Virus record (IMG/VR): IMGVR_UViG_3300029908_000004
Span: 1-43,457 of that record
Length of the DNA: 43,457 nt
DNA from: a virus
Direction: 5' to 3' (one strand)
The position numbers and the translations under genes were made by a program. The number at the start of each line of letters is the position of its first letter. The first letter of the stretch is position 1. Shown here in pieces: positions 29,599 to 42,221 of this stretch. Under the pieces are notes generated by a model, which had not been told where the DNA came from, made no database searches, and saw only the letters and a list, made by a program, of their open reading frames with translations.

Positions 29599-29675
29599 TG
29601 GTGCCCATGACTAGATTCAAACTAGCACCCTCTGTCTTCGGAGGACAGTGCTCTATTCATTTGAGCTACACGGGC
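29599..29675 (-). tRNA. tRNA-Arg (CCG)
   Basis: Acceptor GCCCGTG/CATGGGC (one G-U), D-arm TAGCTCAAATGAATAGAGC, anticodon stem CTGTC/GACAG with loop CTCCGAA (anticodon CCG), T-stem CTAG/CTAG, discriminator A, encoded CCA. Its first 23 nt are also the last codons and stop of the gene at 29653. Confidence 0.9.
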
Positions 29676-31867: not shown

Positions 31868-31953
31868 TGGTGCACGCAGGAGGACTCAAACCTCCGAAGG
31901 TCTAAGACCGACGGGTTTACAGCCCGTAGTAATTGTCGCTATACGATACGTGC
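31868..31953 (-). tRNA. tRNA-Tyr (GTA)
   Basis: Class II: acceptor GCACGTA/TGCGTGC, anticodon stem ACGGG/CCCGT with loop CTGTAAA (GTA), variable arm GGTC-TTA-GACC, T-arm GGAGG/CCTCC with TTTGAGT, discriminator A, encoded CCA. Confidence 0.93.
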
Positions 31954-33001: not shown

Positions 33002-33078
33002 TGGAGTTCCCGGAGAGGCTCAAACTCTCAACCTAAGGGTTAGAAACCCTTTGCTCTGTTCAATTGAGCTACGGGAAC
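33002..33078 (-). tRNA. tRNA-Arg (TCT)
   Basis: Acceptor GTTCCCG/CGGGAAC, anticodon stem AAGGG/CCCTT with loop TTTCTAA (anticodon TCT), T-arm GAGAG/CTCTC with TTTGAGC, discriminator T, encoded CCA. It reads AGA, a codon this AT-rich phage should use often. Confidence 0.92.
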
Positions 33079-34177: not shown

Positions 34178-34252
34178 TGGTAGCACTAATGAGCTTCGAA
34201 CTCATATTCTCACTGTGAAGGAGTGGCGACCTAACCCTTAGTCGATAGTGCT
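34178..34252 (-). tRNA. tRNA-Glu (TTC) with C33
   Basis: Acceptor AGCACTA/TAGTGCT, anticodon stem CACT/AGTG with loop CCTTCAC (anticodon TTC), T-arm ATGAG/CTCAT with TTCGAAG, discriminator A, encoded CCA. Loop position 33 is C instead of the near-universal U. Confidence 0.85.
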
Positions 34253-34255
34253 ATA

Positions 34256-34846
34256 TTAATGTTTCTTAACTTCTTTCACATTGACGCTGCTAACATCTAT
34301 ATCTTTAGGACACCAATTAAAGACTGGGCTTTTAGACACTTCATTTAACGCCATCATTTGGGCATGTCCTGCGTTATACGCACTTTTTATTATTACCAAA
34401 CGTGAGATAGTAGTCATTGTTTCTACAGTCACATAGTAATCACCAGTTTCCTCTGTGATTCCCATTTCTTCAAGGACACTGTTCGCCCAGTTAACTTCCT
34501 TATCAGTTGCTGTGGTAGCAGTGAACTCGAAGTAATGATCAGGAATATATTGACACTTGGGAAACTGTTCCCTAGTACGTCTCACAATTAATCTTTGATG
34601 TGGATGAGTCTTAGGATAGACATGTTCGTCTGTTGTTAAATTAGACGTCCCACTTGTATCAGACCAGTTCCAACTACTACGTGATTTACTTTTCATGAAA
34701 AATATAACTTTTACAGACTTCACCTTATGATTAATGGTGTTACCTATCGTAAGATTTAAGTCCAATATTGCCAGAGCTTTCACTCTCTTTTGTATCTCTG
34801 TACCTATCTTGATACGTTCTTCTTCAGTCATTCTTGCTATTGCCAT
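34256..34846 (-). CDS. Hypothetical protein (196 aa)
   Basis: An N-terminal helical part (MTEEERIKIGTEIQKRVKAL) and a beta-rich rest (KVKSVKVIFFMKSKSRSSWN, YYVTVETMTTISRLVIIKSA). I do not recognise it. No catalytic motif is visible. It lies between two tRNA-Glu genes. Confidence 0.65.
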   Translation of the reverse strand: MAIARMTEEERIKIGTEIQKRVKALAILDLNLTIGNTINHKVKSVKVIFFMKSKSRSSWNWSDTSGTSNLTTDEHVYPKTHPHQRLIVRRTREQFPKCQYIPDHYFEFTATTATDKEVNWANSVLEEMGITEETGDYYVTVETMTTISRLVIIKSAYNAGHAQMMALNEVSKSPVFNWCPKDIDVSSVNVKEVKKH

Positions 34847-34861
34847 GATTTCCTTTGTATC

Positions 34862-34938
34862 TGGTGGTGCTAGTGAGATTCTAACTCACATTCTGTATCT
34901 TGAGAGGATACCTACCTATCCAGTTAGTAGATAGCACC
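34862..34938 (-). tRNA. tRNA-Glu (CTC)
   Basis: Acceptor GGTGCTA/TAGCACC, anticodon stem GTATC/GATAC with loop CTCTCAA (CTC), T-arm GTGAG/CTCAC with an unusual loop TTAGAAT (A at position 56), discriminator A, encoded CCA. Confidence 0.9.
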
Positions 34939-34950
34939 TTTTATAAGAAT

Positions 34951-35025
34951 TGGTAGTCCCGGTTGGAATTGAACCAACAACCTTTCCGTTATCAGCAGAA
35001 TGCTCCACCCTTGAGCTACGGAACT
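34951..35025 (-). tRNA. tRNA-Ile (GAT)
   Basis: Acceptor AGTTCCG/CGGGACT (one G-U), anticodon stem TTCTG/CGGAA with loop CTGATAA (GAT), T-arm TTGG/CCAA with TTCAATT, discriminator A, encoded CCA. Confidence 0.9.
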
Positions 35026-35049
35026 ACGAGATTAAATAATGCTGGGGAC

Positions 35050-35250
35050 TTAAGTGTTATATCTAATTGGTAAATACCCTACATACACAGTAGTTAACTT
35101 ATTTAATTCCTCACAACAAATTGAGCAAGCGTTAACATAATAATAAATCTTAGGTTCATTGTTAAACGTACCCAAAGATTGTCTTACTATTTGTTTAGTC
35201 CCATTACACTTCCAACATATTCTTGAATGTATAGTTTTTCTATCGAACAT
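35050..35250 (-). CDS. Small zinc-ribbon protein (66 aa)
   Basis: Start is ATG 35250 (MFDRKTIHSR), as the longer frame runs through tRNA-Gln(CTG). CWKCNGT and CSICCEEL form a likely zinc ribbon. No family is recognised; the CxxCxGT pattern is like DnaJ-type or nucleic-acid ribbons. Confidence 0.6.
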   Translation of the reverse strand: MFDRKTIHSRICWKCNGTKQIVRQSLGTFNNEPKIYYYVNACSICCEELNKLTTVYVGYLPIRYNT

Positions 35251-35256
35251 AACTCT

Positions 35257-35330
35257 TGGCTCCGACCGGTGGATTCGAACTACCATAACAACTTCCAGAG
35301 AGTTGTGTCCTACCATTAAACGAGGTCGAA
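35257..35330 (-). tRNA. tRNA-Gln (CTG)
   Basis: Acceptor TTCGACC/GGTCGGA with U1-A72 and discriminator G (Gln identity), anticodon stem CAACT/AGTTG with loop CTCTGGA (CTG), T-loop TTCGAAT with one mismatch in the T-stem, encoded CCA. It abuts the RNase H stop. Confidence 0.88.
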
Positions 35331-35933
35331 TTAATTCTTTAACACAGCCCAAGCGTTTACTAATGTTTCAAATGTTTCTTCTACCCTAGTAATCTTAGAA
35401 ACTCTTGGTACTTCCTTAAGATCTTTTATAGCTTCCTCATGGGCTAGCAAAGCTTCTAGTAGCCTCTGATCAACTTCAGAACGCCTGTCAAGTGCTATTA
35501 CCTCTGGCTTCATACCTCTATCCATTGCTAGATTAGCTAATGAATCGGCATGTTTATTCTGTTCTCTAGGTACCCACTTCAATGTAAGATTAACTCCAAG
35601 CTTCTTCAGCTTGGCCATTCTAATACGGGCTGCTTTGTATAGCTCTAATAAGTCTACACTTTTAACATTCCAGTTACCGCTCAGTTGCTCGATTATTAGC
35701 TTGGAATCAGAGTGAACTACAACAATATTATAGTTCATTTCTATAGCATAATCCAGAGCTCTAATAAGTGCTGTGTACTCGGCATAGTTATTACTTTTAT
35801 CTTTAAGATAGTCGCTCTTCTCAAGGATACAAGTCTTCTTATTACCCTCTACAAGTATACCTGATACGCCTATCCCTGCTGCTCCCGGGTTAGCTCTTGA
35901 ACCACCATCACAGTAGAGCCAAAGCTCAGGCAT
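35331..35933 (-). CDS. RNase HI-like protein
   Basis: The 200-aa protein has CDGGSRANPGAAGIGV (first Asp), NNYAEYTALIRAL (Glu), VHSDSKLIIEQLSG (Asp) and VPREQNKHADSLAN (last Asp), the complete active site of RNase HI. It cuts RNA in RNA-DNA hybrids, for instance primers. A C-terminal helical extension of about 60 residues is not part of the core fold. Stop codon abuts tRNA-Gln(CTG). Confidence 0.9.
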   Translation of the reverse strand: MPELWLYCDGGSRANPGAAGIGVSGILVEGNKKTCILEKSDYLKDKSNNYAEYTALIRALDYAIEMNYNIVVVHSDSKLIIEQLSGNWNVKSVDLLELYKAARIRMAKLKKLGVNLTLKWVPREQNKHADSLANLAMDRGMKPEVIALDRRSEVDQRLLEALLAHEEAIKDLKEVPRVSKITRVEETFETLVNAWAVLKN

Positions 35934-35952
35934 CTTGTACCTCTACTTTCCT

Positions 35953-36026
35953 TGGAGAGATGTATCGGGTTCGAACCGATGATTACGCGTTGGCAACGCA
36001 TTATTTTGCCCCTAAATTAACATCTC
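35953..36026 (-). tRNA. tRNA-Gly (GCC)
   Basis: Acceptor GAGATGT/ACATCTC, anticodon stem ATGCG/CGCGT with loop TTGCCAA (GCC), T-arm ATCGG/CCGAT with TTCGAAC, discriminator T, encoded CCA. Its first 26 nt double as the end of the gene at 36001, whose TAA is in the D-arm. Confidence 0.9.
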
Positions 36027-36282
36027 GTATCTGTTCTACACTAAACTTAGATTTAAGGCGTATGACACCCTCTAAATCTGTAGTAAATTTAAAGAAGATC
36101 CCACGTCTATTCAATTTATCTATTAGGGTATCGATATGTATTTTACGAGATTCATCATCCCCACCAACATGGCTTATTACATCACGTAATGTACGTATCT
36201 CATCATAACTAAGTACAATAGAATAGAGTTCTACATTAGAATCAGCCTTAGAACGGAAGATATTTATCCTTGTACTCTTCAT
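36001..36282 (-). CDS. VGG-family paralog 1 (93 aa)
   Basis: First of three tandem paralogs with the shared core L..[DE]E...LRDV-I-S-H-V-G-G, then a basic stretch and a helix with D.L...L. This copy: MKSTRINIFRSKADSN, LSYDEIRTLRDVISHVGG, HIDTLIDKLNRRGIFFKF. Function unknown. Its 3' end lies within tRNA-Gly(GCC). Confidence 0.65.
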   Translation of the reverse strand: MKSTRINIFRSKADSNVELYSIVLSYDEIRTLRDVISHVGGDDESRKIHIDTLIDKLNRRGIFFKFTTDLEGVIRLKSKFSVEQIRDVNLGAK

Positions 36283-36330
36283 GATTAAGCCTCAGTGAAG
36301 TATATGGAATCCTTCATATCCTCTCATCCA

Positions 36331-36528
36331 CTATTGTAGATACCACTTTGAAATTCGTATGTTATCAACATACTTCCTACGACTTGTAATAGCAGACCCA
36401 CCAACAGACCCCAGTATATCACGTAATACTTGCGCTTCTTCGAAGTTGAGGGTTATAGTGTAGTAGGTTGTTTCATTAGGTATGCTTATACGAATGGAAT
36501 TGAATACATTTATTCTTATATGTTTCAT
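36331..36528 (-). CDS. VGG-family paralog 2 (65 aa)
   Basis: Start at ATG 36528 (MKHIRINVFNS) by alignment with paralog 1. Core LNFEEAQVLRDILGSVGG and RKYVDNI. It is shorter than paralog 1 at the C-terminus, so it may be truncated (ends SKWYLQ). Function unknown. Confidence 0.6.
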   Translation of the reverse strand: MKHIRINVFNSIRISIPNETTYYTITLNFEEAQVLRDILGSVGGSAITSRRKYVDNIRISKWYLQ

Positions 36529-36532
36529 AATG

Positions 36533-36796
36533 TTACCTGAAATAAATAGCGCCAAAATCCATATCAGATCTTCTGCGTCCGACGTTATCTTTTATTCCAC
36601 TTGCGTCAAGGCTTCTTAGTACCTCATCGGCATAGCACCTTCGAGTGGTGCGAGGGCCGCCGACACTCATTAAGATATCAAACAAAGTCTCAGCTTGCTT
36701 AGTATTCAACTTCAGTATAATAGGAGCTTCTTCTTTCACAGGTCTATTATTCTGCAAAAATATATTCAATCTATCGGTTAAATGTGGATTTTCCAT
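36533..36796 (-). CDS. VGG-family paralog 3 (87 aa)
   Basis: Core LNTKQAETLFDILMSVGGPR, RRCYADEVLRSLDASGI. The three copies differ widely in sequence but keep the spacing, so the duplication is old. Function unknown. Overlaps the next upstream gene by 19 nt. Confidence 0.6.
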   Translation of the reverse strand: MENPHLTDRLNIFLQNNRPVKEEAPIILKLNTKQAETLFDILMSVGGPRTTRRCYADEVLRSLDASGIKDNVGRRRSDMDFGAIYFR

Positions 36797-37029
36797 TTGT
36801 GTCCGTTTTTACAAGAACCAACCTTCGTTTTGGTTTGACATACGACTTGTGGATTCGTTTCAGGACGAGCTGGGTTACATGATGCGGGGGACTCACTTGG
36901 ACAATGAGGACAGTAGCTAACTATTCTCATTCTACCTCTTGCTCCTCCCGGGGAACTATGCGCTCTACCATTCATTTGTTTCAACTTACGTTTCGTAACC
37001 GTTGAATGTTTAACTACCCCTGCTGCCAT
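36778..37029 (-). CDS. Hypothetical basic zinc-finger protein (83 aa)
   Basis: A basic N-terminus (TVTKRKLKQMNGRAHSSPGG) and CPHC, C-N-P, C, C-K-N-G-H in the second half, which suggest one or two zinc sites. It may bind nucleic acid. No family is recognised. Confidence 0.55.
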   Translation of the reverse strand: MAAGVVKHSTVTKRKLKQMNGRAHSSPGGARGRMRIVSYCPHCPSESPASCNPARPETNPQVVCQTKTKVGSCKNGHKWKIHI

Positions 37030-37121
37030 ATTTTCCTTCCCTGTGTTAAGTCATACGGATATAGTTTGAACAAGATGTTTTTCGATGCTACCATTACACC
37101 AAGCTGGCATAAATTATTAAA

Positions 37122-37251
37122 TGGTGCCAGCCCTGGGATTTGAACCCAGACCCGTTCGTTATGAGTGAAGATAACCTTGCTCTGTCGACCCGTATGATTT
37201 GAATTTAATGATGAGGATATGGGGTGGAATTGGGTAAGCCTTTCGGCTGAC
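37122..37251 (-). tRNA. Interrupted tRNA-Met-like gene (CAT)
   Basis: The 3' part looks like elongator tRNA-Met: loop CTCATAA (CAT), CGAAC, variable GGGTC, T-arm CTGGG/CCCAG, GGCTGGC, A, CCA. The acceptor partner GTCAGCC (7 bp, one G-U) lies 127 nt upstream, about 50 nt too far, with extra sequence in the D-arm region. The 5' anticodon strand (CTTCA) no longer pairs well with CGAAC. Either an interrupted gene or a decayed one. Confidence 0.4.
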
Positions 37252-37280
37252 GGATGTTCTACCATTTGAACTACATCCAC
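37252..37280 (-). pseudogene. tRNA 5'-half remnant
   Basis: GTGGATG followed by a perfect D-arm (TAGTTCAAATGGTAGAAC) looks like the first 27 nt of a tRNA. The matching 3' half (CATCCAC end) is absent; the interrupted Met-like gene begins right after it. Confidence 0.4.
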
Positions 37281-37285
37281 TCGAT

Positions 37286-37352
37286 TGAATGGAAGATTGG
37301 ACTCGAACCAATAACATTCTGTTTGAGATAACCAATTTCTATCGACCCTCAT
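37286..37352 (-). pseudogene. Shortened tRNA-like sequence (Leu CAA-like)
   Basis: A good T-arm (ATTGG/CCAAT, TTCGAGT) and an acceptor that pairs over six of seven positions (ATGAGGG/CTTCCAT), but only 64 nt in total with a short D-region. The possible loop CTCAAAC would give CAA. The end reads TCA, not CCA. Probably decayed. Confidence 0.35.
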
Positions 37353-37359
37353 CTAATAC

Positions 37360-37824
37360 TTATTGTGTAGCTTCCTTTTCGTTCCTTGATGGTGAGGTGC
37401 ACTCCTTGCGCGTGTTGGCCACCATCTCCTCGTACATGTGACCAAGCTGCTCTGATTCTTGGGCATGAGCTTCTGCCACTTCATCTACCACTACAGCTTC
37501 TGCCTGTGGTTGAGTACGTGGTGTCTTCAGCCAAAGAAGAGCAGCTTCCTGCGTACGCTGTGGGAACTTATCGTAACACAAGATTGCAGAAAGGATATTT
37601 ACTTTGATATCCCCTTCAACCTTTACAGTATCAGAGAGCCAGCTACCATTGGTCAGTCTTGATACAGCGATATGACGCCCCAACTTCTTGTTGAAACAAT
37701 CCTTTGGGTTGTGTGTGGAAACGGCGAAGATAGCTTCGTCTTCGGTCTGGGTATAAGCAACGCAAGCAACGGGGAAGCGATTCTCGTTGCGAAGAGAAAA
37801 TACCTTTACTGTTGGTTCAGTCAT
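37360..37824 (-). CDS. Hypothetical protein (154 aa)
   Basis: Beta-rich first half (VKVFSLRNENRFPVACVAYT, EAIFAVSTHNPKD) and a helical, Glu-rich C-terminus (VVVDEVAEAHAQESEQLGHM). No family is recognised. Its local base composition is richer in G+C than the neighbours', which hints at a different origin. Confidence 0.65.
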   Translation of the reverse strand: MTEPTVKVFSLRNENRFPVACVAYTQTEDEAIFAVSTHNPKDCFNKKLGRHIAVSRLTNGSWLSDTVKVEGDIKVNILSAILCYDKFPQRTQEAALLWLKTPRTQPQAEAVVVDEVAEAHAQESEQLGHMYEEMVANTRKECTSPSRNEKEATQ

Positions 37825-37846
37825 ACTACTTCTCCTTTGGGGTTAA

Positions 37847-37920
37847 TGGTGGGACTAGGAGGAGTCGGACCTCCCTCGACGAATTAAGAATCCGCTGCAT
37901 GGCCGATGTGCTATAATCCC
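37847..37920 (-). tRNA. tRNA-Lys (CTT)
   Basis: Acceptor GGGATTA/TAGTCCC, anticodon stem GCGGA/TTCGT with loop TTCTTAA (CTT), T-arm GGAGG/CCTCC with loop TCCGACT (C at position 55), discriminator A, encoded CCA. Confidence 0.88.
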
Positions 37921-37927
37921 TTATTGT

Positions 37928-38104
37928 TTAGTCCTGTACTGCTATCACGTATTCTAAGAGACCTATTAGATCCTGAGCTATGCTTTTTAGCATAGCGGCT
38001 CCAACAACATCTCCTTTTTCTCGTAAATGTTTATCTAACAGCTCAAATCCATTGACAAACATTTCCGCTTGAGCTTCTGCTTCTTCTTGGGTTAACTCTG
38101 GCAT
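37928..38104 (-). CDS. Hypothetical helical protein (58 aa)
   Basis: AAGGA stands 6 nt before the ATG. The protein is helical (MPELTQEEAEAQAEMFVNGF, then LREKGDVVGAAMLKSIAQDL). It exactly fills the space between tRNA-Phe and tRNA-Lys(CTT). No family is recognised. Confidence 0.6.
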   Translation of the reverse strand: MPELTQEEAEAQAEMFVNGFELLDKHLREKGDVVGAAMLKSIAQDLIGLLEYVIAVQD

Positions 38105-38119
38105 ATCATATCCTTTGTA

Positions 38120-38197
38120 TGGTGGCTAGAGAGGGAGTTGAACCCCCGACACACGGATTTTCGGTCCGCTGCTCTACCGAGACTGAGCTATCTAGCC
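38120..38197 (-). tRNA. tRNA-Phe (GAA) with C33
   Basis: Acceptor GGCTAGA/TCTAGCC, anticodon stem GCGGA/TCCGT with loop CCGAAAA (GAA), T-arm GGGGG/CCCTC with TTCAACT, discriminator A, encoded CCA. Position 33 is C, not U. Confidence 0.88.
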
Positions 38198-38206
38198 ATA
38201 TTTAAA

Positions 38207-38281
38207 CTACGATTTTCTGTTAAGGAATCGTTCTAACACTACGAAAATAATGAACATAACTAATACTAAAACAATAGTCAT
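38207..38281 (-). CDS. Tiny membrane peptide (24 aa)
   Basis: AAAGG stands 5 nt before the ATG. The peptide MTIVLVLVMFIIFVVLERFL plus NRKS is one hydrophobic helix with a basic end. Lone transmembrane peptides of this size are found in many phages; a role in lysis control or host membrane change is only a guess. Confidence 0.5.
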   Translation of the reverse strand: MTIVLVLVMFIIFVVLERFLNRKS

Positions 38282-38308
38282 AATTACCTTTATGTATTAA
38301 GTCTTATG

Positions 38309-38376
38309 TTGTAGTAGTTATAGTACAGATTCTGGATGGGCCTGAGGTCTAGAATTTATAACTACAACTACTACAA
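38309..38376 (-). repeat. Long inverted repeat after the PTH2-like gene
   Basis: TTGTAGTAGTTATA (38309-38322) pairs with a right arm at 38357-38376 over 14 bp, with a 6-nt bulge that looks like a local AACTAC duplication. A second, inner stem (TCTGGA/TCTAGA) lies in the loop. It follows the PTH2-like stop and may end its transcript or shield the RNA from exonucleases. Confidence 0.45.
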
Positions 38377-38380
38377 GCTC

Positions 38381-38899
38381 TTACAAGCTCTGGCGTTGGG
38401 AGATAGGTACTGCTGAGTTACATAACCACAAAGGTAAGTAGTCTGTTATACCTACTAGCCTAGAACTTTCTATTGGTTCTGTACAAATAGCTGTTAGTAC
38501 TAGTCCATCTATTCCATATATCTTCGGATTCTGATCATGGAAGGCATGGATAGGTATAAAAGCTTTGTTTAATAATGTTACTACATGCCATAGTTCATCA
38601 CTATTTCTGGCACCTAGTATCACTGTTGTAATAGGTATTATATCATCGGCCCTAGAGAATTTCATTAAACTAATAAGTCCTGGAGCGATACCCTTCTTCT
38701 TTCCCTTAGTTCTAGCATTATGTTCTTGAACTCTATCTAGGGAAACTCTCATCTTAGATACGACATGAGCTACTTGAGCAGCCGCTCTACCCCAATCTTG
38801 AGGTATGGTTCTACGAATTCTACGTGTAGTAAGGTGAGAAAATATTTCTACTTGTACTGTCTCAGCAACCACTACTACTATTCTTTTCTCTTCTGTCAT
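38381..38899 (-). CDS. Peptidyl-tRNA hydrolase 2-like protein
   Basis: The 172-aa sequence follows the PTH2 order: a basic helix with WGRAAAQVAHVVSKMR (family GK.AAQ..HA), then PITTVILGARNSDELWHVVT (K.vl.v.se.eL..L), IPIHAFHDQNPKI (D.g.tq) and TAICTEPIESSRLVGITDYL (T..aigP...E.id.vTg.L.L). PTH2 frees tRNA from stalled peptidyl-tRNA. Some conserved residues differ, so it is a divergent member and activity is not certain. It fits the translation genes nearby. Confidence 0.65.
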   Translation of the reverse strand: MTEEKRIVVVVAETVQVEIFSHLTTRRIRRTIPQDWGRAAAQVAHVVSKMRVSLDRVQEHNARTKGKKKGIAPGLISLMKFSRADDIIPITTVILGARNSDELWHVVTLLNKAFIPIHAFHDQNPKIYGIDGLVLTAICTEPIESSRLVGITDYLPLWLCNSAVPISQRQSL

Positions 38900-38901
38900 A
38901 T

Positions 38902-39111
38902 CTAATCCTTGAAGGAAGAAGGAGAGTCAGATATTATTATTTCTGTTGGTGGTTCTACAGGATAAGCATTTACCGCGTCAAGAATAAACTTCATTACATG
39001 ACTACGATCACAGGCAAGTCCAACTGGTTCTCCATCGGCTGAAATGATTTCCATTCCTTCTTGCTTCCATGGTCGTGGTGGTACCTTAGGTAGTCGTATT
39101 GTTCTACTCAT
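38902..39111 (-). CDS. Hypothetical protein (69 aa)
   Basis: Basic, Pro-rich start (MSRTIRLPKVPPRPWKQEGM) and an acidic end. Not recognised. It ends 3 nt before the PTH2-like gene and is probably translated with it. Confidence 0.6.
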   Translation of the reverse strand: MSRTIRLPKVPPRPWKQEGMEIISADGEPVGLACDRSHVMKFILDAVNAYPVEPPTEIIISDSPSSFKD

Positions 39112-39127
39112 AAATCCTTTGAAGTAA

Positions 39128-39155
39128 TGGCGGTAGAGAGGAGAGTCGAACTCCT
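39128..39155 (-). pseudogene. tRNA 3'-half remnant
   Basis: A complete T-arm (AGGAG/CTCCT, TTCGACT), 3' acceptor strand CTCTACC, G, and CCA. The 26 nt upstream do not form a 5' half; the intact tRNA-Ser(TGA) lies directly before. Confidence 0.5.
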
Positions 39156-39181
39156 AAGTCCGGTTAGGGTACTATAGTTTA

Positions 39182-39274
39182 TGGAGGAAGCGGTCCGATT
39201 CAAACGGACGGACCCCATCATTGGGCATCGGAAGTTTTCAGGACTTCTGCATTAGTTCGCTCTGCCACGCTTCC
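39182..39274 (-). tRNA. tRNA-Ser (TGA) with C33
   Basis: Class II: acceptor GGAAGCG/CGCTTCC, anticodon stem GAAGT/ACTTC with loop CCTGAAA (TGA), long variable arm with GCCC/GGGG, T-arm GTCCG/CGGAC, discriminator T, encoded CCA. Position 33 is C. Confidence 0.87.
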
Positions 39275-39280
39275 AATAAC

Positions 39281-39372
39281 CGGTAACCTCTGTTTCTAAC
39301 TGAAAATTGGACCCCTCAGTTATGCGTCGGACTAGCTAGAACGAGTTGATGCTACGCCCCATCACCGGTTAC
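39281..39372. other. tRNA-sized three-stem structure, no gene
   Basis: GTAACC (39283-39288) pairs with GGTTAC (39367-39372). Inside are AACTGA/TCAGTT (39298-39303, 39316-39321) and GCGT/ACGC (39324-39327, 39354-39357) with the palindrome CTAGCTAG in its loop. The whole is tRNA-sized but has no T-arm or CCA. It may be a decayed tRNA or a small structured RNA. Strand is not clear. Confidence 0.35.
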
Positions 39373-39397
39373 TACAACAACTCTAATTACTTATAAT

Positions 39398-39485
39398 TGG
39401 AGGAAGGAGAGGGAGTCAGACTCTCAAGTCCCTTACGGGCACCCTGAGTTTCTAGCTCAGTTGGCTTATCGATGCCTACCCTTCC
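39398..39485 (-). tRNA. tRNA-Ser (AGA)
   Basis: Class II: acceptor GGAAGGG/TCCTTCC, anticodon stem CTGAG/CTCAG with loop CTAGAAA (anticodon AGA, unusual A34), long variable arm, T-loop TCTGACT, discriminator T, encoded CCA. Its first 10 nt overlap the end of the gene at 39476. Confidence 0.85.
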
Positions 39486-39859
39486 TTTAATTCTAATTTC
39501 TTACAATTACATTCATTACATGCAGAATTATCATAATTATGAGACCAATAGAAATGTCCACAAATACATGTGTCTATTCCTATTGACATGAATGGTGTTA
39601 TTTGATGAAGAAGCACTTGATCTTGTTTCAAGAACCTATATAGAGAAGATCGCTTCTCTGTTCGACATCTTTTTGCATTAGGATTAAGTATTGTATGCAT
39701 CAAATCTAACAAATCTAATCCTAATGTTCTAGAACCACAGAACTTTTTATCCTTACTAACTTTCTTTAACAAGTGTAAGGCTAAAGTATCCCTGTCCTCT
39801 TGTGGTAATTGTATACGCTTCTGACTATAAAAATTCGCTAATATCTCTAATCTTTTCAT
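39476..39859 (-). CDS. Zinc-tail paralog A (127 aa)
   Basis: Helical body (LALHLLKKVSK..., LLDLMHTILNPNAKRC) and a C-terminal Cys/His motif CICGHFYWSHNY...CNECNC. It is a paralog of the gene at 40414 (same order: LAL.L, IL.P, FL/QLK.D.VLL.Q..PF, C.CGH..(F/S)H(N)Y). Function unknown. The stop TAG lies in tRNA-Ser(AGA). Confidence 0.65.
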   Translation of the reverse strand: MKRLEILANFYSQKRIQLPQEDRDTLALHLLKKVSKDKKFCGSRTLGLDLLDLMHTILNPNAKRCRTEKRSSLYRFLKQDQVLLHQITPFMSIGIDTCICGHFYWSHNYDNSACNECNCKKLELKEG

Positions 39860-40167
39860 GGTGTTATAGATGTTATCTTTGGTAGAGTTGGTAGTTCTCT
39901 AGGTGATAGTGTTGGTAAACAAGGTTCATGTAATACTAATGTGGGCTGGATAAGGAGCGTCTTGTTCTTAGAGAATCGTTTGTAATATTCGATCCAAATA
40001 GCAGCATCCTGATTGGAACTTTCTAAAGCTGCATCCCAAACAAGGCTACATTCAGCCCAATGTCCGTGCCCAACGAACCCTGTGACACCTTCCATCCAAA
40101 CCACTCTGCACTTATTTTTGGCGAACGCAGAAGAACATAGTAGAAGTATAATTAATAGTTTTTTCAT
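39856..40167 (-). CDS. Exported hypothetical protein (103 aa)
   Basis: A classic signal peptide, MKKLLIILLLCSSAFA, with likely cleavage before KNKC. The mature part has a few Cys and a Pro-rich end (PTLSPRELPTLPKITSITP). It might be a periplasmic or secreted phage protein; role unknown. A lipobox is not clear. Overlaps both neighbours by 4 nt. Confidence 0.65.
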   Translation of the reverse strand: MKKLLIILLLCSSAFAKNKCRVVWMEGVTGFVGHGHWAECSLVWDAALESSNQDAAIWIEYYKRFSKNKTLLIQPTLVLHEPCLPTLSPRELPTLPKITSITP

Positions 40168-40493
40168 TTACTAGACCCTATCTTACAATCACAACCAAAT
40201 GTTTCTGGTTGTGATACCTCAGTTATGAAGCGGTCTGGGGCTCTTCTTGGTTTATCACATACCGAACAAACTTTTCCTGCTCCACAACAATCCTCGCAGG
40301 TAGTGGTCTTACCATGACAGTAGACACACACTTTTGTTGGTGGGAGTAACACGTCTAACTCATCTACTTGAATGGCAAGATTATCCAAAGTAATCCATTC
40401 ATTTTTGTCGTAGTTAGCAGGCCTCTCTGATGTACACCCACGAGCTTTCCCCCATAGATGTACTACTAAGCTGTGCATACTTTGTTTGTTCAT
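40164..40493 (-). CDS. DnaJ-like zinc-finger protein (109 aa)
   Basis: The middle CVYCHGKTTTCEDCCGAG then KVCSVCDKP follows the CxxCxGxG-like repeat of the DnaJ zinc domain, without J-domain. The family binding unfolded proteins or nucleic acid is only a resemblance. It overlaps the upstream gene by 80 nt, so a later start (ATG at 40478) is possible. Confidence 0.55.
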   Translation of the reverse strand: MNKQSMHSLVVHLWGKARGCTSERPANYDKNEWITLDNLAIQVDELDVLLPPTKVCVYCHGKTTTCEDCCGAGKVCSVCDKPRRAPDRFITEVSQPETFGCDCKIGSSK

Positions 40494-40926
40494 GAGGTTT
40501 CTCCCTAGAACCCAGACTTGATTTTGAGCTCTTCACACTTACCCTTGGCTTTACCGCGTGTTCACAACCAGTGCACTTCCATTTTTTACCTATGTAATCA
40601 TGATTAAAGGATATATGCCCACATTCACAATATGGATCGTAATCACATATGAAAGGGCTTAGTTGTCCTAATAACACTGGGTCGTCTTTCTTTAGCTGAC
40701 GGATAAAGTTAGATTGTTTAAATAATAAAACTTTACTCTGTGTTGGATCTAGTATAGCCCTCGTCGTCTCTGCTAAGTCTTTTATAGAGGCGTTGGTGTC
40801 CCAGATATGCTCGTTGGTTAAAGACCACTTGAACAAGAATAACGCTAAGGCTTCCCTAAGTGCAGTGTCCATTACTATAGTCTGTTTACTATAGTCTTCC
40901 ATAATTTGTTGATATTTAGATTTCAT
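40414..40926 (-). CDS. Zinc-tail paralog B (170 aa)
   Basis: Paralog of the 39476 gene with LALFLFKWSLTNEHIWDTNA, AILDPTQSKV, LKKDDPVLLGQLSPFICDYD and CECGHISFNHDY...CTGCEH. The last 40 residues are Ser/Lys-rich and overlap the next gene, so they may be a later extension. Function unknown. Confidence 0.6.
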   Translation of the reverse strand: MKSKYQQIMEDYSKQTIVMDTALREALALFLFKWSLTNEHIWDTNASIKDLAETTRAILDPTQSKVLLFKQSNFIRQLKKDDPVLLGQLSPFICDYDPYCECGHISFNHDYIGKKWKCTGCEHAVKPRVSVKSSKSSLGSREKPHEQTKYAQLSSTSMGESSWVYIREAC

Positions 40927-40936
40927 AATATATGTT

Positions 40937-41005
40937 TGGAGCTATCGAAGAGTCTCGAACTCTTGAGTTTTATTTGTAGATTAAAATTGTAGCTGAACTC
41001 CCTCA
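40937..41005 (-). pseudogene. tRNA-like sequence with abnormal 5' half
   Basis: A normal T-arm (AAGAG/CTCTT with TTCGAGA), 3' acceptor strand CGATAGC, discriminator T and CCA. The 5' half is wrong: no strand pairs well with the acceptor (GTTGAGG matches five of seven), and the anticodon region (around AATCTAC) lacks a proper stem. Probably a decayed tRNA. Confidence 0.4.
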
Positions 41006-41006
41006 A

Positions 41007-41270
41007 CTATAAAACCATTATCTTGTCACATTCAGCTTTGTTCTTTTCTTCTTTTAGTCTTGCATCTTCTACAAGGAATGGAAGATATAATCGTTCGGCA
41101 TATTCTAGCTTAGCATTTAGCTGGGCTATTTTGTAGTTGTACGCCTCTACTTCAAGGATATCCGGGCCTACTACACTCCATGCACTAGGATTATATAATT
41201 CTCTTATTTCTTTACGACAGTTAACTATCGTTGTTCCTAATTCTTTTCTTATTGATTCAAGTGTCCACAT
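41007..41270 (-). CDS. Hypothetical helical protein (87 aa)
   Basis: Helical, charged (MWTLESIRKELGTTIVNCRK, YNYKIAQLNAKLEYAERLYL, DARLKEEKNKAECDKIMVL). Probably a small coiled coil. No family is recognised. Confidence 0.6.
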   Translation of the reverse strand: MWTLESIRKELGTTIVNCRKEIRELYNPSAWSVVGPDILEVEAYNYKIAQLNAKLEYAERLYLPFLVEDARLKEEKNKAECDKIMVL

Positions 41271-41277
41271 ATATGTA

Positions 41278-41305
41278 TGGAGCTGAGAGTCGTGATTGAA
41301 CGGAC
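41278..41305 (-). pseudogene. tRNA 3'-half remnant
   Basis: A weak T-arm (GTCCG, loop TTCAATC, ACGAC), 3' acceptor strand TCTCAGC, discriminator T and CCA, lying 16 nt after the intact tRNA-Thr. No 5' half is present. Confidence 0.4.
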
Positions 41306-41319
41306 GCTAGCTTATAAGT

Positions 41320-41394
41320 TGGAGCTACCAGAGAGATTTGAACTCCCGATTGACTGATTACAGATCAGTTGCTGTTCCACTGAGCCATGGTAGC
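41320..41394 (-). tRNA. tRNA-Thr (TGT) with C33
   Basis: Acceptor GCTACCA/TGGTAGC, anticodon stem ACTGA/TCAGT with loop TCTGTAA (TGT), T-arm GGGAG/CTCTC with TTCAAAT, discriminator T, encoded CCA. Position 33 is C. Confidence 0.88.
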
Positions 41395-41488: not shown

Positions 41489-42154
41489 ATGATAACCCTA
41501 AGTATGGAACAATTTACCAAACTAAATAGTCGCTCACCAGTAGAATGTAAATGTGAACAATGTAACAGTCTTTTCTACAGAGTAAAACATGATTTACAGA
41601 CAGCTATTCGTAGGAAAGAACCAATATCATTTTGTTCGCCGAAGTGTTATGGTTTATACAGAAACACTAAGACTACTGTCAAATGTTTATGGTGTAAGTC
41701 TGAAGTAGTTAGAATACCAACTACTAAGAATGTCTTCTGTTCGAGATCGTGTTCTGCAAAATATAATAACACACATAAAACATTTGGGACTAGAAGATCG
41801 AAACTTGAGAGATTTCTAGAAGAACAAATAAAATTATCGTACCCCAATTTGGAGCTTATATGCAATAGCAAATCAGTCATCGGTTCAGAGTTAGATTTCT
41901 ATTTCCCGAGGCTCAGATTGGCGATAGAACTCAATGGTATTCTGCACTACGAACCAATCTATGGGACAGATAAATTCTCTAAAATTGTTGACAATGATAG
42001 ACAAAAAGTTAGATTATGTGAAGCTATGGGTATTGAGCTAGCAGTTATTAATTCTTCGTCATGTTCACGCATGAGCGCAGTATTTAAAACTAAGTATTTG
42101 GGGATAACACGTGAATTAATAGACTCTGTTATTGATAGAGGAAATTTGGGGTAG
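41489..42154 (+). CDS. EDxHD/Vsr-like homing endonuclease on the plus strand
   Basis: This 221-aa protein has two N-terminal zinc modules (CKCEQCNSLFYRVKHDLQ...FCSPKC and CLWCKSEV...FCSRSCSAKY). A Vsr-fold nuclease follows: SKLERFLEEQIKLSYP, SELDFYFPRLRLAIELNGIL and HYEP, then DNDRQKVRLCEAMGIELAVI. The E, D..E and H pattern fits the EDxHD homing endonucleases such as I-Bth0305I. It lies alone on the plus strand between tRNA-Thr and tRNA-His and its stop overlaps the 3' end of tRNA-His. No interrupted gene is visible beside it, so it may target a tRNA or intergenic site. Confidence 0.8.
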   Translation: MITLSMEQFTKLNSRSPVECKCEQCNSLFYRVKHDLQTAIRRKEPISFCSPKCYGLYRNTKTTVKCLWCKSEVVRIPTTKNVFCSRSCSAKYNNTHKTFGTRRSKLERFLEEQIKLSYPNLELICNSKSVIGSELDFYFPRLRLAIELNGILHYEPIYGTDKFSKIVDNDRQKVRLCEAMGIELAVINSSSCSRMSAVFKTKYLGITRELIDSVIDRGNLG

Positions 42155-42221
42155 ATAGAGAGGTTCAAACTCTCGCTAAGGGAGCCACAGACCCTCGTGC
42201 TTTCATTACACTATACCTACC
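42147..42221 (-). tRNA. tRNA-His (GTG)
   Basis: Acceptor GTAGGTA/TATCTAC with an encoded G at -1 opposite C73, both His-specific; anticodon stem AGGG/CCCT with loop CTGTGGC (GTG), T-arm GAGAG/CTCTC with TTTGAAC, CCA encoded. It reads CAU and CAC, the two codons of the putative bypass at 27251. Confidence 0.88.

What the first reader, a model, noticed from the sequence alone, without database searches (positions are those of the whole stretch)
34178..41394. Four tRNAs with C33 instead of U33
tRNA-Glu(TTC) CCTTCAC, tRNA-Phe(GAA) CCGAAAA, tRNA-Ser(TGA) CCTGAAA and tRNA-Thr(TGT) TCTGTAA all have C at loop position 33. U33 is almost universal in elongator tRNAs and makes the U-turn. All other parts of these tRNAs fold well. 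One idea is escape from host anticodon nucleases that recognise the loop; phage tRNAs with altered loops have been proposed to resist such enzymes.
Basis: partly seen in the sequence, partly recalled or inferred. Interest (0 to 1): 0.65.

Follow-up and report, generated by a model that had tools for sequence, protein, structure and literature searches.

The report
Phage tRNAs with cytosine at position 33

Summary
Exactly 4 of the 30 ARAGORN tRNAs in this 215-kb phage have C33 (Glu-UUC, Phe-GAA, Ser-UGA, Thr-UGU), and an independent assembly is identical there. All closest isolate relatives have U33, so the change is derived. It is not unique: C33 recurs, mostly in other isoacceptors, in a relative with 48% terminase identity (4 of 30, or 6 of 33 with weaker calls), in KVP40 and phiCbK tRNA-Ile, and in bacterial tRNA arrays. 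It makes up 3.4% of tRNAs in tRNA-rich viral loci, against 0 of 298 sampled Pseudomonadota genomes for a matched tRNA class. C33 is also in the only Val-GAC or Thr-GGT copy found in one Sulfuricurvum and one Treponema genome, so it is compatible with translation. The tRNAs do not look dead: CCA is encoded, stems are mostly good, tRNA-Ser has a compensated elbow pair, and they read major codons. Most likely they are working tRNAs in which U33-to-C was tolerated. Evasion of anticodon nucleases or other U33-reading enzymes is possible but untested; the host is unknown. Side finding: the phage encodes Ro60 and two Y-RNA candidates.

The parts
34178..34252 (-). tRNA-Glu(UUC), loop CCTTCAC, C33 at 34220; CCA encoded; reads GAA, the most used codon of the phage (37.1 per 1000)
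   Evidence: ARAGORN; Rfam tRNA 45.3 bits; identical in G001; closest phage relative, Aeromonas phage 4_4572 tRNA-Glu, has CTTTCAA; codon use
38120..38197 (-). tRNA-Phe(GAA), loop CCGAAAA, C33 at 38163; the only tRNA-Phe found in the record
   Evidence: ARAGORN; Rfam tRNA 64 bits, among the best of the record; closest phage relatives TTGAAAA or CTGAAAA
39182..39274 (-). tRNA-Ser(UGA), loop CCTGAAA, C33 at 39241; elbow pair A19-U56 instead of G19-C56
   Evidence: ARAGORN; elbow analysis; closest phage relatives (Karamvirus) CTTGAAA
41320..41394 (-). tRNA-Thr(UGU), loop TCTGTAA, C33 at 41363
   Evidence: ARAGORN; Rfam tRNA 58.6 bits; closest phage relative phiPMW tRNA-Thr TTTGTAA; Thr-UGU also has C33 in relative G035

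Best explanation
The four genes are working elongator tRNAs of the phage's own near-complete tRNA set. In each, U33 has changed to C, the pyrimidine least harmful to the U-turn, and the change has persisted because the anticodon loop still works well enough on the ribosome. Shown: the sequence, its confirmation in a second assembly, the derived state, intact or compensated tRNA structure, encoded CCA, a phage CCA-adding enzyme, recurrence in other tRNA-rich mobile elements, and C33 in chromosomal bacterial tRNAs. Inferred: expression, charging, decoding, and that the change is tolerated or only weakly selected rather than a specific adaptation.
For: Stems, T-loops and CCA are intact in all four apart from single deviations. 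Deviations in this phage concentrate at 33 and 56 and not at T-loop positions 54 and 58 (0 of 30 each), unlike generic decay. In tRNA-Ser(UGA), A19-U56 replaces G19-C56, a compensated pair also seen in three U33 tRNAs of this phage and in all five U56 tRNAs of the neutral viral sample. The tRNAs read GAA (37.1/1000, top codon), UUU+UUC (35), ACA (25) and UCA (15.8). All closest isolate relatives have U33. C33 recurs in G035 (4 of 30, 6 of 33 with weaker calls), G054 5/34, G055 3/24, G056 2/28 (these three were picked because they carry C33), and tRNA-Ile of KVP40 and phiCbK. The only Val-GAC found in one Sulfuricurvum genome and the only Thr-GGT found in one Treponema genome have C33. The phage encodes a CCA-adding enzyme. 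Published precedents: metazoan initiator tRNA (PMC9023262), Sulfolobales tRNA-Cys (PMC7668247), and t6A37 formation not significantly affected by U33C in human mitochondrial tRNA-Thr (PMC7102964).
Against: U33C lowers performance in some tests: yeast tRNA-Gln(CUG) U33C gave a phenotype attributed to poor CAG decoding or charging (PMC3664417), and SUP4 U33C lost ochre suppression because U34 was not modified (PMC11096365). A tolerated change does not by itself explain enrichment in tRNA-rich mobile elements over cells or the frequency of C33 in phage tRNA-Ile(GAU). No expression data exist. Glu (27:43 mismatch) and Ser (low Rfam score) could be weakening genes.
Confidence: 0.6

Rival explanations
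1. C33 is selected because it hides the phage tRNAs from host enzymes that read U33, either anticodon nucleases directly or wobble-modifying enzymes whose products such nucleases need. The phage keeps translating while host tRNAs are cut.
For: Phage anticodon-loop changes have been tied to predicted nuclease insensitivity (PMC10264068) and phage tRNAs rescue phages from tRNA-depleting defences (PMC11555353). C33 is enriched in tRNA-rich viral loci (3.4%) over Pseudomonadota genomes (0 of 298). U33 is read by Elongator in eukaryotes and U33C blocks U34 modification (PMC11096365). Three of the four tRNAs have U34.
Against: No host, no nuclease and no shared target are known. C33 sits on mostly different isoacceptors in the related phage. 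It also occurs in bacterial chromosomal tRNAs. Sf14 work rejected nuclease escape (PMC12482277).
Confidence: 0.17
2. The C33 tRNAs are genes in decline, part of relaxed selection on redundant phage tRNAs, and some are no longer used.
For: Glu and Ser have further deviations. For eukaryotic genomes, tRNA genes departing from conserved positions are usually low-scoring pseudogenes (PMC9023262).
Against: Phe and Thr score 64 and 58.6 bits, CCA is intact, the Ser elbow pair is compensated, and they read major codons.
Confidence: 0.15
3. Position 33 is edited from C to U after transcription, so the working tRNA is ordinary.
For: C-to-U editing of tRNA is known in other systems (own knowledge); editing would restore the usual loop.
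Against: No bacterial or phage C33-to-U activity is known to me, and no candidate deaminase was found in the proteins scanned, which was not an exhaustive search.
Confidence: 0.05
4. Assembly or sequencing error at position 33.
For: The record is a single metagenome contig.
Against: A second assembly agrees at every tRNA, and four independent T-to-C errors at the same structural position are implausible.
Confidence: 0.02

Closest known systems
Mycobacteriophage cluster C1 tRNAs with anticodon-loop changes (van den Berg et al. 2023, PMC10264068)
   Same: Large tRNA set in a phage; loop bases differ from those of cellular tRNAs.
   Different: There, changes were matched to known VapC sites in a known host; here host and nuclease are unknown, and the change is always U33 to C. 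That paper's text does not mention U33 or position 33.
tRNA-Ile(GAU) of Vibrio phage KVP40 and Caulobacter phage phiCbK
   Same: Phage tRNA with C33 (loop CCGATAA).
   Different: One per phage, and a different isoacceptor; in the present phage tRNA-Ile(GAU) has U33.
Chromosomal C33 tRNAs of bacteria (Val-GAC in Campylobacterota, Thr-GGT in Treponema and Lachnospiraceae)
   Same: C33 in an otherwise standard elongator tRNA.
   Different: Repeated in one isoacceptor across a group, whereas here C33 is scattered over four isoacceptors.
Metazoan initiator tRNA-Met (C33) and Sulfolobales tRNA-Cys (C33)
   Same: Published natural C33 tRNAs (PMC9023262, PMC7668247).
   Different: Not phage; one is an initiator.

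Membership tests
Functional elongator tRNA | Cloverleaf with 7-base anticodon loop, T-loop, discriminator and CCA | tested here: met
   ARAGORN structures; Rfam above gathering for Glu, Phe and Thr. Ser was found by ARAGORN only.
Functional elongator tRNA | U33 | tested here: not met
   C33 in all four. C33 also occurs in chromosomal bacterial tRNAs, so this does not exclude function.
Functional elongator tRNA | Transcribed, charged and used on ribosomes | not testable with these tools
   No RNA data.
Phage tRNAs that evade anticodon nucleases | Loop differs from the host isoacceptor at a known nuclease site | not testable with these tools
   Host unknown; only distant relatives in IMG/VR and no close isolate.
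Phage tRNAs that evade anticodon nucleases | Resistance to cleavage compared with the unchanged tRNA | not testable with these tools
   Needs an experiment.
Pseudogene tRNA | Broken stems, lost CCA, generic loss of conserved positions | tested here: not met
   0 of 30 deviations at 54 and 58; the Ser elbow change is compensated; CCA present in all four.
Natural C33 initiator tRNA | CAU anticodon and initiator features | tested here: not met
   Anticodons are UUC, GAA, UGA and UGU.

The most novel reading that the evidence does not exclude
C33 is a recurrent signature of tRNAs carried by mobile elements: phages and tRNA arrays repeatedly replace U33 with C in varying isoacceptors to hide from bacterial enzymes that read U33, while keeping decoding.
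Probability: 0.15. Interest if true: 0.75.

Novelty: new variant of a known kind. Interest (0 to 1): 0.42.

Why it matters
U33 is treated as invariant in bacterial elongator tRNAs. If the phage C33 tRNAs work, they show how much of the U-turn is dispensable, and a C33/U33 pair of one tRNA would be a clean probe of which bacterial enzymes read position 33. If C33 proves protective, it would be a simple and searchable mark of phage escape from tRNA-targeting defence. If it is only tolerated, it warns against reading every loop change in phage tRNAs as nuclease escape.

Tried and rejected
Sequencing error: rejected, a second assembly agrees. Uniqueness to this phage: rejected, C33 is in relatives, isolates, bacterial arrays and chromosomes. 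Inheritance of C33 from a common ancestor with G035: only Thr-UGU is shared and the two genes are diverged. Generic decay: not supported. Host identification: no DNA match in phages, terminase at most about 29% identical to isolates; host not found. IMG/VR G042 turned out 100% identical to G035 over the region compared and adds no independent evidence. A bias of C33 to tRNAs with U36 was seen in the pooled viral set (83/117 against 541/1408), but the set was partly selected by a C33 pattern and is dominated by Ile-GAU, so no weight is placed on it. G054, G055 and G056 were also found through the C33 pattern, so their counts are illustrations and not a rate.

Full report
What was checked. The window is bases 1-43457 of a 215,291-base IMG/VR virus record. 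ARAGORN finds 20 tRNAs in the window and 30 in the record, all on the - strand; weaker calls add His-GUG (50 bits in Rfam) and Ser-AGA. Exactly four of the 30 have C at loop position 33: Glu-UUC, Phe-GAA, Ser-UGA and Thr-UGU, at the stated coordinates. The C33 bases are window 34220, 38163, 39241 and 41363. An independent contig (IMGVR_UViG_3300031524_001640) covers the tRNA region at 99.98% identity with the same four C33; its three substitutions and one small gap lie outside tRNAs.

Is it more than chance? In an IMG/VR sample taken with a pattern neutral at position 33, C33 is 9 of 552 tRNAs; in loci of that sample with 8 or more tRNAs it is 11 of 327, and 2 of 256 in the rest (which also counts four loci shared with the C33 scan that the neutral pattern hit as well). 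Against these, 4 of 30 gives Fisher p = 0.003 and 0.029, so the enrichment is real but modest for a tRNA-rich phage. In cells it is much rarer for the tRNA class tested: 0 of 298 independently drawn Pseudomonadota genomes match the class-I pattern with C33 (the one match is the genome used as centre, chosen because it had C33), while the U33 version occurs 338 times in 60 of those genomes. In other bacterial groups C33 recurs in one isoacceptor: Val-GAC in Sulfuricurvum and other Campylobacterota, Thr-GGU in Treponema and Lachnospiraceae. It is in the only Val-GAC found among 32 tRNAs of a Sulfuricurvum genome and the only Thr-GGU found among 29 of a Treponema genome. The Sulfuricurvum list rests on 30 fetched loci out of 36 matches and may lack a few tRNAs.

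Relatives. The phage belongs to an uncultured group of large tailed phages (tail sheath, portal and major head protein hits); terminase relatives are at most 53% identical in IMG/VR, apart from contigs of the same phage, and under 30% in isolates. The relative with the most sequence, G035 (IMGVR_UViG_3300018004_000004, 215,395 bases, terminase 48%), has C33 in Gln-UUG, Thr-UGU, Asn-GUU and Ile-GAU, and in the weaker calls Tyr-GUA and Ser-CGA. Two fragments of closer kin have one A33 tRNA-Lys in 10 tRNAs (G047) and one C33 tRNA-Val in 2 (G049); a distant relative (G051) has no C33 in 21. Only Thr-UGU is shared between G000 and G035. Isolates KVP40 and phiCbK each have a C33 tRNA-Ile(GAU); T5 has no C33. 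Bacterial contigs with long tRNA arrays (L500, 10 of 26; L496; L462 from Acidithiobacillus ferrivorans) also carry several.

Direction of change. The best matches of the four tRNAs among isolate phages that were inspected, about 75 to 84% identical, all have U33: phiPMW Thr TTTGTAA, Aeromonas phage Glu CTTTCAA, Karamvirus Ser CTTGAAA, Ruegeria and Bacillus phage Phe TTGAAAA and CTGAAAA. So U33-to-C is derived in this lineage. For Thr and Ser, and for Phe against the Bacillus phage, C33 is the only loop difference; Glu also differs at 38, where its C matches the Shigella tRNA-Glu loop CTTTCAC tabulated in PMC12482277.

Do they work? What is visible says they can. CCA is encoded; Phe and Thr score 64 and 58.6 bits in the Rfam tRNA model. 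Deviations from conserved bases in this phage's tRNAs lie at 33 (4 of 30) and 56 (5 of 30; p = 5e-5 against the neutral sample), and not at 54 or 58 (0 of 30). Four of the five 56 changes are U56 and come with A19, so the G19-C56 elbow pair has become A19-U56; one of these is the C33 tRNA-Ser. All five U56 tRNAs of the neutral viral sample also have G18-A19. Compensation of a tertiary pair indicates selection for folded tRNA. The four read GAA (the most used codon), UUU/UUC, ACA and UCA. The phage also encodes a CCA-adding enzyme. Expression, charging and decoding are inferred, not shown.

Mechanism. The best reading is that C33 is a tolerated substitution: a pyrimidine that keeps most of the turn, with some cost. 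Published tests point both ways: t6A37 formation is not significantly affected by U33C in human mitochondrial tRNA-Thr (PMC7102964), whereas U33C harms yeast tRNA-Gln(CUG) function (PMC3664417) and prevents Elongator modification of U34 (PMC11096365). Natural C33 exists in metazoan initiators (PMC9023262) and Sulfolobales tRNA-Cys (PMC7668247). It is kept as a rival at 0.17.

Literature. The paper searches made here found no open-access paper that reports C33 in phage tRNAs; most subscription papers are not held, so absence is not shown.

Side findings are listed separately; the most notable is a Ro60 protein with two candidate Y RNAs inside the tRNA region.

Noticed in passing
window 37047-37195 and 37206-37354, - strand: Two tandem candidate YrlA-type Y RNAs: closing stem of 5' and 3' ends, then T-arm, capped acceptor stem and D-arm (a permuted tRNA shape). 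RF02553 hit of 26.6 bits on the second (below its gathering score of 69), fold z-scores -3.35 and -2.58.
   Followed up: partly
G000:56987-58687 (L092:13987-15687, - strand), outside the window: Full-length Ro60/Rsr protein: TROVE (1.3e-39) plus Ro60 vWA domain (2.3e-47), near the tRNA cluster; TROVE also in phages G051 and G056. TROVE proteins in some jumbo phages are published (PMC7824862).
   Followed up: partly
window 29599-29675, 31868-31953, 33002-33078, 39182-39274: Four tRNAs (Arg-CCG, Tyr, Arg-TCT, Ser-TGA) have A19-U56 instead of the near-invariant G19-C56 elbow pair; the same compensated change is in all five U56 tRNAs of an unrelated viral sample.
   Followed up: partly
whole record G000, mainly 24-65 kb: With weaker calls (His-GUG at 42147-42220, Ser-AGA at 39398-39485) the phage tRNA set covers all 20 amino acids.
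   Followed up: partly
window 40938-41013, 41279-41320, 39128-39181: Further 3' tRNA-like pieces (T-arm plus CCA) without a matching 5' half, seen by eye; possibly remnants or more tRNA-like RNAs.
   Followed up: no
L161:18138-18483 (G035) and L558:3130-3478 (G051): Two related tRNA-rich phages encode a tmRNA (150 and 71.7 bits); none reached the threshold in the stretches of the present phage searched that way (63-203 kb; 43-63 kb).
   Followed up: no
KVP40 and phiCbK tRNA-Ile(GAU); many IMG/VR contigs: In phages C33 is common in tRNA-Ile(GAU) (loop CCGATAA) while in bacteria the C33 hits are mostly Thr-GGU and Val-GAC; the isoacceptor spectrum differs and is unexplained.
   Followed up: no
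L500 (JACQVO010000002.1, 5240 bases): A short contig binned as Methylomirabilota with 26 tRNAs, 10 of them C33: a dense tRNA array, perhaps from a phage or other mobile element.
   Followed up: no
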